Positions 1-5,413 of a DNA stretch of 42,129 nt are shown in pieces. How positions within the stretch are numbered: the first letter of the stretch is position 1; the number at the start of each line of letters is the position of its first letter. The stretch is from Dehalococcoidia bacterium. GTDB lineage: Bacteria; Chloroflexota; Dehalococcoidia; E44-bin15. Made by a program: the position numbers and the translations under genes. The stretch lies in assembly GCA_030610655.1 (NCBI GenBank), contig JAUWRG010000007.1, positions 1 to 42,129 on the forward strand, given 5' to 3'. The notes under the pieces are model-generated. The model saw nothing but the letters and a program-made list of their open reading frames with translations. It was not told where the DNA came from and made no database searches.

Positions 1-469
1 ATGGGCAACAAGATAAATCGTGGTTATATAAAATTCATGGTAGGATTCGACCCGATTTTGCGATTCGTAACAGCCTTGCATCTTTCCCTGGTAACCCCTG
101 AGGAAATGTGCCGCATCAAAGTGTTCCCGAACCGATACCTCGAACATCAAAAGCCCCGCAAAGAAAACTGCCTACATCTCTTAGTGGCCTTGTTATTCTA
201 ATCCCTCGACCTCCATTCAGCTATATTTCGGGAAGCCGACCTTTGGTCTTCCCTCCGATTTTTCAAGTATCTGACCGAACCCTATGGACGATTGTGCAAC
301 TAGGTAACAAAACAAGCAATTGTGCAGGCTTTTCAGATCGTCTAGCGTTCCGGGGCTTTGCGAAGTGTCCCAAAGGGTATTTGGGTGAGCGCACCGAACC
401 GCAAACACGCTGTTGACCGATGCGGCAGCATTAGCTTGGTCTATTATTATGACTGTACAACCACTGACC

Positions 470-1012
470 TTAAGCATGCGATGTCGAACTTTGCTTCTTG
501 TTTATCTCCTCTTTTAATAATCTGCTGGTAACAAATTGTGCTTTGCCTTTACTAGCAGATAAAATCTGGTTGCCAAATTCTTTGACTATTGACGGGAAGA
601 CCTTGTTTATGTCATCCTCCAGCGGCAAAATTCTGCGAGTACTGAACCTGCCGAGGCGAACAGCACCCGATTTGATATTCTTGCTTGAGGCTATGAACCA
701 ATCAGATAATAGACTAACCTTTAAAATTGCATAACCAGTTACTCCTCCATGTAGTAGCTCGCATTGTTTCAAACCACTAACATCTTTTCCCCCTATGATG
801 ACTTCGTCTTGGTCAGTTGTTTTAACCTCGAGCCAATATTTCAAATCATTCTTCACTGCCTCTATATCCACGTCTTGGACACTGCGTTCCTTTACTTCAA
901 AGCACAGTCGACAAAACGCGATGGCAAGAAGCTTTTGTGCAACTTTGCCAAATTCACCGGGGCCATGCTTGTCCCTTATTTGTCTCAGAGTTTCAAAAAC
1001 GATCGGTTCCAT
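470..1012 (-). CDS. Putative PD-(D/E)XK-fold nuclease / restriction endonuclease-like protein, 180 aa
   Basis: ORF with ...VQDVDIEAVKNDLKYWLEVKTT..., compatible with the D...ExK core; 9 bp downstream of the ATPase gene on the same strand. Confidence 0.55.
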   Translation of the reverse strand: MEPIVFETLRQIRDKHGPGEFGKVAQKLLAIAFCRLCFEVKERSVQDVDIEAVKNDLKYWLEVKTTDQDEVIIGGKDVSGLKQCELLHGGVTGYAILKVSLLSDWFIASSKNIKSGAVRLGRFSTRRILPLEDDINKVFPSIVKEFGNQILSASKGKAQFVTSRLLKEEINKKQSSTSHA

Positions 1013-1021
1013 GCCCTACTA

Positions 1022-3169
1022 CTAAATCTCCTTGGGTTGAGCACCCCTATCATTAGACCGTAGATCAAACCGATAGCACTTCTTTTTCCTAACTACATTT
1101 GTTAGAATCAAATGACTAAAGTCGGCTTCGGAAGTCGAAATCAAAATTTGTTTATCATCGGGTATAGAGTTCAAGATGCCAACCAGATTTTCCTTATGCA
1201 AACTATCTAGGCTTTGTGAAGGATCGTCCAAAATAATGAACCCAAGGTTATGCGATAAATCTTGTGCTACCCCCAGACCAAGAAAAATACTTAATCCGGC
1301 ACAATTCAAATCACCTTGGTTAAAAATCGACAGAGCTGGAATTTTTTCACTGCCTTTGACTGCAAAAATCTCAAAGTTATCGGGGTCAATTTCTAGTTCC
1401 GAAAAATCAGCCCGGTTTGCCAAGTTCTTAAATATACTAGCAATACTATCTTTTGCAGCTTCTAATTTTGCCTCAGCGCTTGTCTGAAGGACGTTCTCTA
1501 TAGCTTGACCGATTAACTCAACGCCTTCAGCAAACTTCTCAAGCTTGAATTTGTAATTTTCCACCTCTTCATATTCATCTGTTTCTTTTATCTTCACTAA
1601 ATTGTAGCTCTCGGCTTCTAAGGTCAACACCCTTAATATCTGCTCCAACTTAGAAATATCATCTTCAATAGCATTCAGCGTCTGATTGCTTTCTTTTACT
1701 ACACTTTCGAGTTTTTTAAGTTCCTCTTGGATATTTTCGAGTTCCTTTCTCACAACAACAATAGGATCCTCTGTCTCTTTTATTTCATATCCAAGTGCGG
1801 TCTCTGTATCTGATTTGTGTTTTATAAGCAGTTCAGTTTTACTGTTTATCTTTTTGTCCAAACCGTTTAGGCTTTCTATTAAATCTTCCAAACGCTTAAT
1901 TTCTAGCCCATATTTCTCGATCTCTTCCCTAATTGGGGCTAAATCGTCATCCAAATTTGCCCTCAATTCTTTTAGATGTGTCTGTAAGTGCATTATATCA
2001 TCAATAGGTTTATCGCAGACGGGACAAGGCTGCTTTTTGGTGGGAGGTTTGAGAGCCTCGAAGTATTTGATAGCCTCTTCAATCGTGCCGGCTCGCTTAT
2101 CGATCTCATTCCGCCTGTCTTTTGCGTCATCAAGTTTAGGATTCAATTCATTTGATATTCGGAGGCGCATTTTCTCCTGATCGCCGTCGGTTTCGTGGAT
2201 ATGCTTTCTCTCTCCATTAAGCTCCTGAAGTCCACCTAATAGATCTTTATAGGTTTGTTGTGCCTTTTGCAATTGACTCTGTTTTTCAAGCAACTCCTTT
2301 TGCCGTTGTAGGTCGGGCTGTTCATCACGAAGCCTTCTAAGCGATTGCTTAGCTGAATCGGCAAAGTTTTGTTGCTCATCTAATGTGCGCGCCAAAGGTA
2401 GATCCGGCATAGTTAGGCCAGTCTGATTCGCAAAGTTAACAAGCGCAGTTTTTACCGTCTCACACTTCTGACCGGCACCAGTTTCTGAGAAGTCACTAGA
2501 TGTAAGACCTTTCAGGATTCCTGTCTCTTTCTCTCTTTGAATATCAGTCTGTTTGCTTGTTATAACAGCGTTTAGTTTGGTTTCGATTAGTCCAAATCTA
2601 TAATCGACATCCTTCAGAGTCTCAGAAATCTTTGCCGATTTTATCCCCTCAATGATATTCCGCAATTCTGATAGTCCCAATAGTCGATCGAGTGAATCCC
2701 GTCGGCTCTTTGGTTCCTCAGTGAGAAACGCTCTTATGATTTCTTGGTGTAGGTGGACTGAACTGAAATAGTCCTCGGGTTGAATTCCGAGCATCGCTCG
2801 CAATTTCTTTTCATCTGTGTCCTGAATCCTATTCAGCTCAAAATAGAAATCTGAACCGCTCCTCCTTTTCTTATCTGAACGAACAATCTTAAGAATGTCT
2901 TGTTCCTTCTGTAAAACCATTTCGACCCGAGCTTCATCTGCGTTGGTATTCCGAATCTTCCAACCTCTACGCTCATCAATCCCAATGGCTTTCTTCGCAA
3001 TCTCGTCGCCAAAGAGCCCCCACTCTATGGCAACTAATGCACTGCTTTTTCCTGAACTCTGGGGACCATCAAAAAGGATAAGAGGTTCCGAAGTCGAGAA
3101 AGTTTTTTCTTCAATAAAACCTCTAAACCCTTTAATAGTTATTTCTTTTAGTATCCAACGGTCTCCCAT
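1022..3169 (-). CDS. Rad50/SMC-like ATPase with zinc-hook motif, 715 aa
   Basis: N-terminal Walker A-like FDGPQSSGKSSALVAIEWGLFG, long coiled-coil region with CPVC hook (KQPCPVCDKPIDD), C-terminal Walker B LGFIILDDPSQSLD. Confidence 0.85.
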   Translation of the reverse strand: MGDRWILKEITIKGFRGFIEEKTFSTSEPLILFDGPQSSGKSSALVAIEWGLFGDEIAKKAIGIDERRGWKIRNTNADEARVEMVLQKEQDILKIVRSDKKRRSGSDFYFELNRIQDTDEKKLRAMLGIQPEDYFSSVHLHQEIIRAFLTEEPKSRRDSLDRLLGLSELRNIIEGIKSAKISETLKDVDYRFGLIETKLNAVITSKQTDIQREKETGILKGLTSSDFSETGAGQKCETVKTALVNFANQTGLTMPDLPLARTLDEQQNFADSAKQSLRRLRDEQPDLQRQKELLEKQSQLQKAQQTYKDLLGGLQELNGERKHIHETDGDQEKMRLRISNELNPKLDDAKDRRNEIDKRAGTIEEAIKYFEALKPPTKKQPCPVCDKPIDDIMHLQTHLKELRANLDDDLAPIREEIEKYGLEIKRLEDLIESLNGLDKKINSKTELLIKHKSDTETALGYEIKETEDPIVVVRKELENIQEELKKLESVVKESNQTLNAIEDDISKLEQILRVLTLEAESYNLVKIKETDEYEEVENYKFKLEKFAEGVELIGQAIENVLQTSAEAKLEAAKDSIASIFKNLANRADFSELEIDPDNFEIFAVKGSEKIPALSIFNQGDLNCAGLSIFLGLGVAQDLSHNLGFIILDDPSQSLDSLHKENLVGILNSIPDDKQILISTSEADFSHLILTNVVRKKKCYRFDLRSNDRGAQPKEI

Positions 3170-3184
3170 TATGTATCTCCTATG

Positions 3185-3400
3185 CTACAAGCCCATTTTC
3201 TTTAAGAGCTTGGTATGCGCATCATCAAACTTATCCTTTATAGGGTTAAGCTTTCCTTGCAGGAAGTCAGATACAGCTTGCTTAGTCCCCTCATCATATG
3301 CCGCAAAAATTGCGTCGCAGATACTGAGTAGACGGTTTTGCTCGTCTACTCCTGTAATGTTCTTTTCTAACTCCCCTATGATTTGTTCCCTATCAGTCAT
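3185..3400 (-). CDS. Small hypothetical protein (71 aa) co-oriented upstream of the Rad50-like gene
   Basis: ORF 15 bp upstream of the ATPase gene, same strand; acidic, helical-looking composition. Confidence 0.5.
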   Translation of the reverse strand: MTDREQIIGELEKNITGVDEQNRLLSICDAIFAAYDEGTKQAVSDFLQGKLNPIKDKFDDAHTKLLKKMGL

Positions 3401-3663
3401 GAAATAAGCTCCCCTTTAATGCGTAATGGTTATATGATACCGTCGTTTCGCGAACTCCTATCGTCTTCCTCTCATCTACATAAAATGAAATAGGAAACAC
3501 GACCCGCCTCCCCTACTACTTTACGGATAGATAGTCCTTTAACATCATTCTTGGCTCTCATTCTTTCCACATTTGATTTGAATAATCCCATTTCTGACAA
3601 TTTAGCTCTTCCAACCCGTCGAGTCAAGGCAAGCAGGATAGGAGGATTTTCCCCAGTAAGTAC
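3393..3663 (-). pseudogene. Frameshifted remnant of an upstream gene of the cassette (family unknown)
   Basis: Minus-strand reading VLTGENPPILLALTRRVGRAKLSEMGLFKSNVERMRAKNDVKGLSIRKVVGEAG continues in another frame as RRVVFPISFYVDERKTIGVRETTVSYNHYALKGSLFHD*, whose stop overlaps the start of the 71-aa ORF. Confidence 0.4.
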
Positions 3664-3757
3664 TTAACATTCCGCCCAATTGTTCAGGCTTCTAGTATTA
3701 CACGGCATGGAACCTGACCAGCAGCGCAGGGCATACTATCTGGGCTTGCTAGGAAGC

Positions 3758-4573
3758 TCAAAAAGTAATCCCGCCGTCTTTATGAACAGTAAGTCCACCA
3801 CCATGTTTGAAGCAGCATGAAACTACATTATTCAGAGGGCCAGTAGTCTGCTTGGATGTCAGGTTCACCTGAATAGGCCAAACGAAAACCCCTTCGATTG
3901 TGCAAACTGCAACGGGCCATTCCGAAATGCACCCACGTATTGGTTCCCAGATGAAATACGTACATTTTTGTATTATTCTCTCACGCAACTTGACCTCTGT
4001 GAGGGAGCGAAATCTAAGGTTTAGCCTGATGCCTTTCTTGGGGACTCGGATAAGGAGCACATTCGCACTGGGTGGGCACTCCACGTCCTCCACTTCACCT
4101 AGAAGTACCCAATCATTCGCTTCCATCTTCAAGATAGAGTCGCCATTCGCTGTCCGTAAATTCAGGGAAACAGCCTGTAGTCCAAAGCTGTCATGACTTA
4201 TCCATATGACATCCTTATCAGCAATGCGTAGTATGTGATTAGGGCTTATATAGTAATTGCTGCCCACCTCCAAGAGTATTAGTTGTCGTCGCCAGTTGAA
4301 CTTCGCTGTTAGCTTCGCGTTTCTCAGATATGGATACCTCTTCAGGGCTTTAAGCTGCGGTATTGTGTAAGCACCGGCATCAGCTTCCTTGTGGTGCTGT
4401 AGGCATAACGCTACCATACCCTCTGGCCTATAATGAGGGGAAACCCGCTTCGGAGGATCGAAGTGATGCCAAGTCAGGAAAGGACTCCCGCATACCGGAC
4501 AACCGAAGTTGACCTCCTGCCTAAGGATCTTTCTCACTTCTGCTGGGGGCGTTTGAGGAACCGCTCTATCCAT
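3758..4573 (-). CDS. HNH endonuclease domain protein, 271 aa
   Basis: CPVCGSPFLTWHHFDPPKRVSPHYRPEGMVALCLQHHKEAD, HNH/CxxC pattern near the N-terminus, followed by an uncharacterised C-terminal region. Confidence 0.75.
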   Translation of the reverse strand: MDRAVPQTPPAEVRKILRQEVNFGCPVCGSPFLTWHHFDPPKRVSPHYRPEGMVALCLQHHKEADAGAYTIPQLKALKRYPYLRNAKLTAKFNWRRQLILLEVGSNYYISPNHILRIADKDVIWISHDSFGLQAVSLNLRTANGDSILKMEANDWVLLGEVEDVECPPSANVLLIRVPKKGIRLNLRFRSLTEVKLRERIIQKCTYFIWEPIRGCISEWPVAVCTIEGVFVWPIQVNLTSKQTTGPLNNVVSCCFKHGGGLTVHKDGGITF

Positions 4574-4597
4574 GTCTCTTGTTACTCACTCAGAAGA

Positions 4598-4780
4598 TTA
4601 TGCCTCTTCCCTCCAAACCATGTCCTTCTTATCGTAGCTTTCTAATCTCCCTGTCTTTGGGCACTGGAAACTATTGCCAACCAGAGTGCTCGATTCAAAG
4701 GATTTCTTATCGCTAAACGCTATCGGGGACCGGTGTTCTTCACCACATATCTTACATTTATAGTGGACGGTCATCATCAC
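4598..4780 (-). CDS. Small zinc-ribbon-like protein, 60 aa
   Basis: YKCKICGEEH...FQCPKTG: CxxC and a single further Cys; adjacent and co-oriented with the HNH gene. Confidence 0.4.
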   Translation of the reverse strand: MMMTVHYKCKICGEEHRSPIAFSDKKSFESSTLVGNSFQCPKTGRLESYDKKDMVWREEA

Positions 4781-4930
4781 TACCTCTTGCGGTGTAACGA
4801 TTCGAATTTCTCCCTATGGCTCTCATTCTACGCTGGCGCTTCCTTGATGGCAATAGGGAAAGCAGTGAGGCTACCCAATTGAACGAAACGCTATTTTGTT
4901 AAATCCTCTCCTTTGATACTGGCACAGGCA

Positions 4931-5413
4931 TTATAGCTTGCCCATCTTTTTCACATCCTCTTTACCGGGAACCCTGGCCGCCAGATCACTGATACTCTCA
5001 CCGCTTACTGGATGGACTAGCTGGGGGGCGATCTCAAGGAGGGGGATAAGCACAAATGCACGTTCCTTGATCCGAGGATGTGGGATTGTTAACTCTGTTG
5101 TCTCCACAACCAGGTCGCCATAAAATAGTATGTCAACATCTATTGAGCGAGGGCTGTTAGCGAAGCCGGGCACCCTGCCCAAGGTGGCCTCGATGCCCTT
5201 TATCAATGAAAGCAACTGAAGAGGGCCGAGCTCTGTTTCAGCGCGGCAAACGGCATTGAAAAACATGGGCTGCTCCGCATGTCCCACAGGCTCAGTCTCA
5301 TAAAAGGAAGAGACCTGCTCTATTTGGAGCCGCTCGCCAAGTAGTTGAAGTGCCTTTTTCAGATTTGCCTTACGGTCCCCCAAATTCGAGCCAAGACCAA
5401 GATAGACTTTCAT
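4931..5413 (-). CDS. folK: 2-amino-4-hydroxy-6-hydroxymethyldihydropteridine pyrophosphokinase
   Basis: VYLGLGSNLGDRKANLKKAL... and RSIDVDILFYGD...IPHPRIKERAFVLIPL are HPPK signatures. Confidence 0.96.
   Translation of the reverse strand: MKVYLGLGSNLGDRKANLKKALQLLGERLQIEQVSSFYETEPVGHAEQPMFFNAVCRAETELGPLQLLSLIKGIEATLGRVPGFANSPRSIDVDILFYGDLVVETTELTIPHPRIKERAFVLIPLLEIAPQLVHPVSGESISDLAARVPGKEDVKKMGKL

What the first reader, a model, noticed from the sequence alone, without database searches (positions are those of the whole stretch)
470..3663. Candidate defense module: small protein + Rad50-like zinc-hook ATPase + PD-(D/E)XK nuclease
A compact minus-strand cassette pairs a 715-aa SMC/Rad50-like ATPase (Walker A GPQSSGKSS, CPVC hook, Walker B FIILDDPSQSLD) with a small putative ExK nuclease rather than Mre11. 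SMC-plus-nuclease cassettes are known from anti-phage systems such as Lamassu and ABC-three-component types. The 71-aa and frameshifted upstream pieces do not match a described architecture that I recognise.
Basis: partly seen in the sequence, partly recalled or inferred. Interest (0 to 1): 0.65.

Follow-up and report, generated by a model that had tools for sequence, protein, structure and literature searches.

The report
Mobile three-gene Rad50-like ATPase–nuclease module
Three adjacent genes, for a small helical protein, a DNA-gripping Rad50-like motor protein and a DNA-cutting enzyme related to Holliday-junction resolvases, travel together between distant bacteria and archaea, and probably form an undescribed system that recognises and cuts foreign DNA.

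Summary
Three tightly spaced minus-strand genes encode a 71-aa protein, a 715-aa zinc-hook Rad50-like ATPase and a 180-aa PD-(D/E)XK nuclease. The same order recurs in about 20 further loci from more than a dozen bacterial and archaeal phyla. The closest copy, from a Proteobacteria MAG, shares 3.03 kb at 80% nucleotide identity; the match stops at the edges of the three genes, so they move as one unit. In the window the unit sits in a 4.8-kb insertion between folK and queD, genes 9-10 bp apart in two relatives. The nuclease model (pLDDT 92.8) is closest to archaeal Hjc/Hje resolvases, with D49, E62 and K64 invariant. It is not Lamassu by the tests run: PADLOC finds LmuA and LmuC in true LmuB loci but not here, gene order differs, Walker B reads LDDP rather than LDQP, and the ATPases lie apart from LmuB in a tree. 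It is not the host's Mre11-Rad50, since the genome has its own SbcD. Defence genes lie near several copies (SIR2-HerA, OLD, methyltransferase, Cas3). Most likely it is an undescribed anti-mobile-element system that works like Mre11-Rad50 or Lamassu. Function is inferred, not shown.

The parts
3185..3400 (-). Gene 1: 71-aa small, probably all-helical protein; first gene of the unit
   Evidence: ORF with a Shine-Dalgarno-like AGGGGAG upstream. phmmer finds it in L042 (E 2.6e-25), Moorena L044-L047 and L050 at the same place. Similar 58-83 aa ORFs lie directly upstream of the ATPase in nearly all loci.
1022..3169 (-). Gene 2: 715-aa Rad50-like ATPase with CPVC zinc hook (residues 382-385), Walker A 35-43, NQGDLNC signature, Walker B LDDPSQSLD
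   Evidence: Pfam AAA_23 and SMC_N; AF2 pLDDT 87.9; Foldseek best match Rad50; motifs invariant in 21 homologues
470..1012 (-). Gene 3: 180-aa PD-(D/E)XK nuclease of the Hjc/Hje type with an extra C-terminal helical hairpin (about residues 129-178); D49, E62, K64 and Q26 invariant
   Evidence: AF2 pLDDT 92.8; Foldseek Hjc E 7.7e-6; profile against PDB Hjc E 3e-7; Pfam Hjc matched at E 0.05 or better in 12 of 18 members
410..3438 (-). The unit as transferred: the stretch shared with L042 at 80% nucleotide identity, with none outside it
   Evidence: blastn L042 655-3686 against window 3438-410, the only match
148..4930 (.). About 4.8-kb insertion between folK (4931-5413) and the start of queD (ATG at about 147) that carries the unit, an HNH-like gene and remnants
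   Evidence: folK and queD are 9-10 bp apart in relatives L094 and L095. GC of the unit is 41% against 50.5% for the rest of the window.
3758..4573 (-). 271-aa HNH-like protein in the same insertion; not part of the conserved unit
   Evidence: phrog_6544 E 1.7e-36, HNH endonuclease phrog_8048 E 3.9e-5; outside the block shared with L042

Best explanation
A horizontally moving three-gene unit makes one DNA-sensing nuclease complex, most likely used against phages, plasmids or other invading DNA. Two ATPases pair through the zinc hook and through ATP-bound heads and clamp a DNA feature such as an end, hairpin or other unusual structure. The Hjc-type nuclease, probably a dimer docked through its C-terminal helical hairpin, is released or positioned by ATP-driven closure and cuts the DNA near the clamp, taking the place that Mre11 has beside Rad50 and LmuA has in Lamassu. 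The small helical protein is the third subunit, an adaptor or brake between ATPase and nuclease. Shown: gene content, order, co-transfer, fold of the nuclease and ATPase, invariant active-site residues, purifying selection. Inferred: complex formation, DNA-structure sensing, cutting, the role of the small protein, and defence as the purpose.
For: The same three-gene order recurs in G445 and in about 20 loci of the genome scan. The 3.03-kb block shared with L042 ends at the unit's edges. Sequence distances of the three proteins agree: Mantel r 0.92 nuclease-ATPase, 0.80 small-ATPase, 0 of 5000 permutations as high. The nuclease has the Hjc fold with invariant D/E/K. The ATPase is Rad50-like with an invariant hook. 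Spacing is tight, often -4 to +15 bp. It lies in an accessory insertion absent from relatives. Defence genes lie beside or near copies: SIR2-HerA directly upstream in G445, OLD near L043, a type II methyltransferase directly downstream in L061, Cas3e near L064. Selection is purifying.
Against: No function was tested. The neighbourhood evidence covers few loci and has no formal background control, and many neighbours are ordinary metabolic genes. The unit is rare and was not found on plasmids or phages. A few related loci have ATPase and small ORF with no nuclease seen (L062, L067, L019), so the nuclease may not be obligatory in the wider family. Hjc relatives are repair enzymes. The invariant Q26, apparently in place of Hjc's first acid, could alter catalysis.
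Confidence: 0.6

Rival explanations
1. It is a divergent Lamassu / ABC-three-component system: LmuB plus a PD-(D/E)XK effector plus a reduced middle component.
For: PADLOC LmuB PDLC03859 matches the ATPase over its full length, E 1.9e-38, and all 21 homologues. A review describes LmuB as a Rad50 relative of about 650 aa, often with a zinc hook, with PD-(D/E)XK effectors among the LmuA types (PMC10586767). LmuB structures are among the Foldseek matches.
Against: PADLOC finds LmuA and LmuC in true PDLC03859 loci but nothing for this nuclease or small protein. Order is small-ATPase-nuclease instead of effector-middle-ATPase. Walker B is LDDP, not LDQP. The cassette ATPases fall outside a supported LmuB clade (98/97), and Rad50 is the closer structure. 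No ABC-3C middle-component or CTD Pfam hit. PbeC, DndD, mad3 and other families also match the ATPases, so the LmuB hit is partly generic.
Confidence: 0.12
2. A DNA-repair or recombination complex, a horizontally spread alternative to Mre11-Rad50 with an Hjc-type nuclease in place of Mre11.
For: Rad50-like ATPase and Hjc-type nuclease are both repair-type folds; archaeal and bacterial hosts.
Against: Absent from nearly all relatives (1 of 400 phylum genomes by the nuclease; 2 of 363 class genomes hold a true member) and lies in an insertion. The host has its own SbcD. Several copies lie beside defence genes.
Confidence: 0.15
3. A function of the mobile element itself, such as element recombination, homing or exclusion of rivals, rather than host defence.
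For: The unit moves as a block. HNH genes or integrase/transposase genes lie near some copies.
Against: The neighbouring genes differ from locus to locus and no fourth gene is conserved, so no common element is seen to carry it. Not found in the phage, plasmid or viral collections.
Confidence: 0.1

Closest known systems
Mre11-Rad50 (SbcCD)
   Same: Zinc-hook coiled-coil ABC ATPase paired with a nuclease; Rad50 is the best structural and sequence match in the PDB.
   Different: The nuclease is a PD-(D/E)XK Hjc-type enzyme, not the Mre11 phosphoesterase. Extra small protein. ATPase 715 aa. Walker B LDDP. Accessory and horizontally moved; the host has a separate SbcD.
Lamassu (LmuA-LmuC-LmuB, DdmABC) / ABC-three-component
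   Same: Three genes, a Rad50-like hook ATPase of about 700 aa, a nuclease and a small protein; distant ATPase homology.
   Different: No LmuA or LmuC homologue, other gene order, DDP instead of DQP in Walker B, small protein of about 70 instead of about 160 aa, nuclease of about 175 instead of about 400 aa.
Archaeal Holliday junction resolvases Hjc/Hje
   Same: PD-(D/E)XK fold, D...ExK spacing and the stretch around LEVK.
   Different: Invariant Gln (Q26) where Hjc appears to have Glu (judged from recalled Hjc sequence, not aligned here); C-terminal helical hairpin added; next to the hook ATPase in every locus where it was found.
Wadjet (JetABCD)
   Same: SMC-like ATPase plus nuclease directed at foreign DNA (works-like comparison only).
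   Different: JetABC are a MukBEF-like SMC with kleisin and KITE (general knowledge); no such genes here. Only weak PADLOC JetC matches to the ATPase.

Membership tests
Lamassu | LmuB SMC/Rad50-like ATPase of about 650 aa, often with a zinc hook | tested here: inconclusive
   Full-length PADLOC LmuB match, E 1.9e-38, but other defence ATPase families match many members as well and in the tree the cassette ATPases lie outside the LmuB clade.
Lamassu | Glu-to-Gln change in LmuB Walker B (LDQP) | tested here: not met
   Five LmuB of control loci read DQP; all 21 cassette ATPases read DDP. The feature itself is described in PMC10586767.
Lamassu | LmuA effector gene | tested here: not met
   PADLOC finds LmuA in control loci L069, L072 and L073 (E 2e-58 or better) and none for the window nuclease or the L048 nuclease.
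Lamassu | LmuC middle component (lacking in some Lamassu systems) | tested here: not met
   PADLOC finds LmuC in the three control loci and none for the small proteins of the window and L059.
Lamassu | Order effector - middle component - ATPase | tested here: not met
   Cassette order is small - ATPase - nuclease in the loci read; control order.
ABC-three-component | Pfam ABC-3C middle component and effector C-terminal domain | tested here: not met
   No such Pfam hit in 20 small proteins or 18 nucleases at E 0.05.
Mre11-Rad50 | Mre11/SbcD phosphoesterase gene next to the Rad50 gene | tested here: not met
   The partner is a PD-(D/E)XK nuclease; the host's SbcD lies on another contig.
Mre11-Rad50 | Zinc-hook coiled-coil ABC ATPase | tested here: met
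   Invariant CPxC; model with long coiled-coil arms and the hook near residues 382-385.
PD-(D/E)XK nuclease superfamily, Hjc-like | Fold with invariant D and ExK | tested here: met
Hjc resolvase | Match above the curated family cut-off | tested here: not met
   Pfam Hjc 14.7 bits against a cut-off of 21.1; NCBIfam Hjc 12.4 against 70.
Anti-phage defence system | Protects cells against phage or plasmid | not testable with these tools
   Needs an experiment; only neighbourhood evidence here.

The most novel reading that the evidence does not exclude
An undescribed, widely spread immune system in which a Rad50-type zinc-hook ATPase recruited a Holliday-junction-resolvase-type nuclease in place of Mre11, with a dedicated about 70-aa helical subunit, to recognise and cut DNA ends or branched and hairpin structures of invaders.
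Probability: 0.5. Interest if true: 0.75.

Novelty: new variant of a known kind. Interest (0 to 1): 0.62.

Why it matters
Lamassu is said to have evolved from DNA-repair machinery (the title of a paper cited in PMC12904381; the paper itself is not held). This unit looks like a separate branch from the same stock that kept a Rad50-like, possibly hydrolysis-competent ATPase and joined a resolvase-type nuclease. It would suggest that pairing a hook ATPase with a nuclease for immunity arose more than once, and it gives a compact three-protein set in which DNA-structure sensing and cutting can be studied directly. It also shows that an LmuB profile hit alone can mislabel a different system as Lamassu.

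Tried and rejected
Single-sequence searches for ATPase and nuclease in viral, plasmid, phage and genome collections found no true relative, and the nuclease alone was unique among 400 phylum genomes. The Bradyrhizobium plasmid hit (L004) has a small ORF and a split hook ATPase but no nuclease, and falls far from the cassette in the tree. Weak class hits L039 and L041 are SbcC next to SbcD by their sequence, and L040 is a fragment. PADLOC PDLC03859 across the phylum brought in true Lamassu loci and many unrelated hook ATPases, kept as controls. Pfam HSBP1 for the small protein (E 8e-4, below the cut-off, 2 of 20 members) was rejected as a coiled-coil chance match. No target-site duplication worth naming at the insertion ends, no Rfam hit, no tRNA. 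Literature searches found no description of this gene set. A 2020 survey of ABC ATPases in conflict systems (known to me by its DOI) and the Lamassu-evolution paper are not held, so prior description cannot be excluded.

Full report
WHAT IS THERE. Window 470-3400 holds three minus-strand genes with 15- and 9-bp gaps: a 71-aa protein, a 715-aa ATPase and a 180-aa protein. Family libraries give AAA_23/SMC_N for the ATPase and only sub-threshold Hjc hits for the 180-aa protein; the 71-aa protein has no credible family.

IT IS A CONSERVED UNIT. Single-sequence searches suggested an orphan. A relatives search then found G445, another member of the class, with a 29%-identical ATPase. Its locus has the same order: 66 aa, 721 aa, 174 aa. 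A two-member alignment of the fused conserved parts, scanned against 84,980 species genomes, returned 26 loci (one of them, L059, is the G445 locus again). By phmmer with the window's own proteins, the ATPase is found in all 26 and the nuclease in 23, one of these cut off by a contig end. A 58-83 aa ORF directly upstream of the ATPase is seen in nearly all. Most nuclease and small-protein profile hits come from sequences used to build the profiles; the independent evidence is and the fixed position. Hosts span Pseudomonadota, Cyanobacteriota (Moorena), Chloroflexota, Nitrospirota, Planctomycetota, Acidobacteriota, Cloacimonadota, WOR-3, Dadabacteria, Aerophobetes, Micrarchaeota, Thermoplasmatota, Euryarchaeota and others. 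Many are MAGs, so single placements may be wrong. The scan used two short peptide patterns, so the count is a lower bound.

IT MOVES AS ONE BLOCK. L042 (Proteobacteria MAG) shares 3,036 bp at 80% nucleotide identity with the window. The match runs from window 3438 to 410 and is the only match between the two pieces, so the flanks are unrelated. dN/dS for the three genes is 0.18-0.24 (NG86; 0.34-0.51 by YN00). The unit has 41% GC against 50.5% for the rest of the window. In relatives G403 and G407, folK and queD are 9-10 bp apart; in the window 4.8 kb lies between them. Pairwise identities of the three proteins run in parallel: r = 0.92 nuclease-ATPase, 0.80 small-ATPase, 0.73 small-nuclease, 0 of 5000 permutations as high.

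THE PROTEINS. Nuclease: AF2 with 18 homologues gives pLDDT 92.8, pTM 0.90. Foldseek's best PDB matches are archaeal Hjc/Hje resolvases (E 7.7e-6, TM 0.70 by target), and the profile finds Hjc 1gef at E 3e-7. G22, Q26, D49, E62, K64 and W105 are invariant. By position in the first helix, Q26 corresponds to the Hjc glutamate (my reading from known Hjc sequence; not measured on coordinates). Two C-terminal helices (129-152, 158-178) go beyond the Hjc core and are the natural candidate for docking on the ATPase (inference). ATPase: pLDDT 87.9 with long coiled-coil arms and the hook at 382-385. Structure and sequence searches put Rad50 first; LmuB is 12th by Foldseek. CPxC, GKS and DDPxQ are invariant. 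Small protein: judged helical from its sequence pattern only; no fold was computed.

NOT LAMASSU, NOT MRE11-RAD50. PADLOC's LmuB profile matches, which alone would label the locus Lamassu. As a control I fetched Chloroflexota loci that match this profile strongly: most have a ~400-aa effector, a ~162-aa gene and LmuB, in that order, and the five LmuB inspected read DQP in Walker B. PADLOC names the first two LmuA and LmuC in the three loci tested. The cassette has neither, has another order, and reads LDDP. This agrees with a review that lists the Glu-to-Gln change as a LmuB trait (PMC10586767). In a head-domain tree LmuB forms a supported clade (98/97) apart from the cassette ATPases. Those group with two ATPases (L062, L019) that also have a short upstream ORF but no nuclease in view (this grouping, 87/97, is short of full support). 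The host carries its own SbcD elsewhere.

WHAT IT PROBABLY DOES. The accessory distribution, the block transfer and the neighbours point to defence: SIR2-HerA directly upstream in G445, a type II methyltransferase directly downstream in L061, OLD near L043, Cas3e about 1.9 kb from L064. No fourth gene is conserved. There is no formal background for the neighbour counts. By analogy with Mre11-Rad50 and Lamassu, thought to sense DNA ends or hairpins (PMC10586767, PMC12904381), the ATPase dimer should clamp a DNA end or structure and position or release the nuclease. The small subunit would be an adaptor or brake. These last steps are inference.

NOVELTY. No tested library (Pfam, NCBIfam, PHROGs, PADLOC 2023) and no held paper that the searches found names this gene set. 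A 2020 survey of ABC ATPases in conflict systems is not held, so prior mention is possible. I rate it a new variant of the SMC-like-ATPase-plus-nuclease kind.

Noticed in passing
window 1-147: The contig end holds the first about 25 codons of queD and then about 75 bases that no longer match queD of relatives: a second disruption or an assembly artefact.
   Followed up: partly
   Followed up: no
window 3758-4573: 271-aa HNH-like protein of PHROG 6544 (function unknown) in the same insertion. L042 and L058 carry HNH-family proteins, related to each other, downstream of their cassettes.
   Followed up: partly
L062 5819-8466; L019 1264-3909; L067 5786-8091: Related or cassette-like hook ATPases with a short ORF directly upstream but no detectable nuclease; may be a wider family with other effectors.
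   Followed up: partly
L051 4131-6303: The ATPase of the Dadabacteria copy is split into two overlapping ORFs, as by a frameshift, while nuclease and small genes are intact: decay or a sequencing error.
   Followed up: no
G000 contig C45 16276-22794: Two further ATPases that match the LmuB profile (819- and 853-aa frames) lie on opposite strands in the same genome.
   Followed up: no
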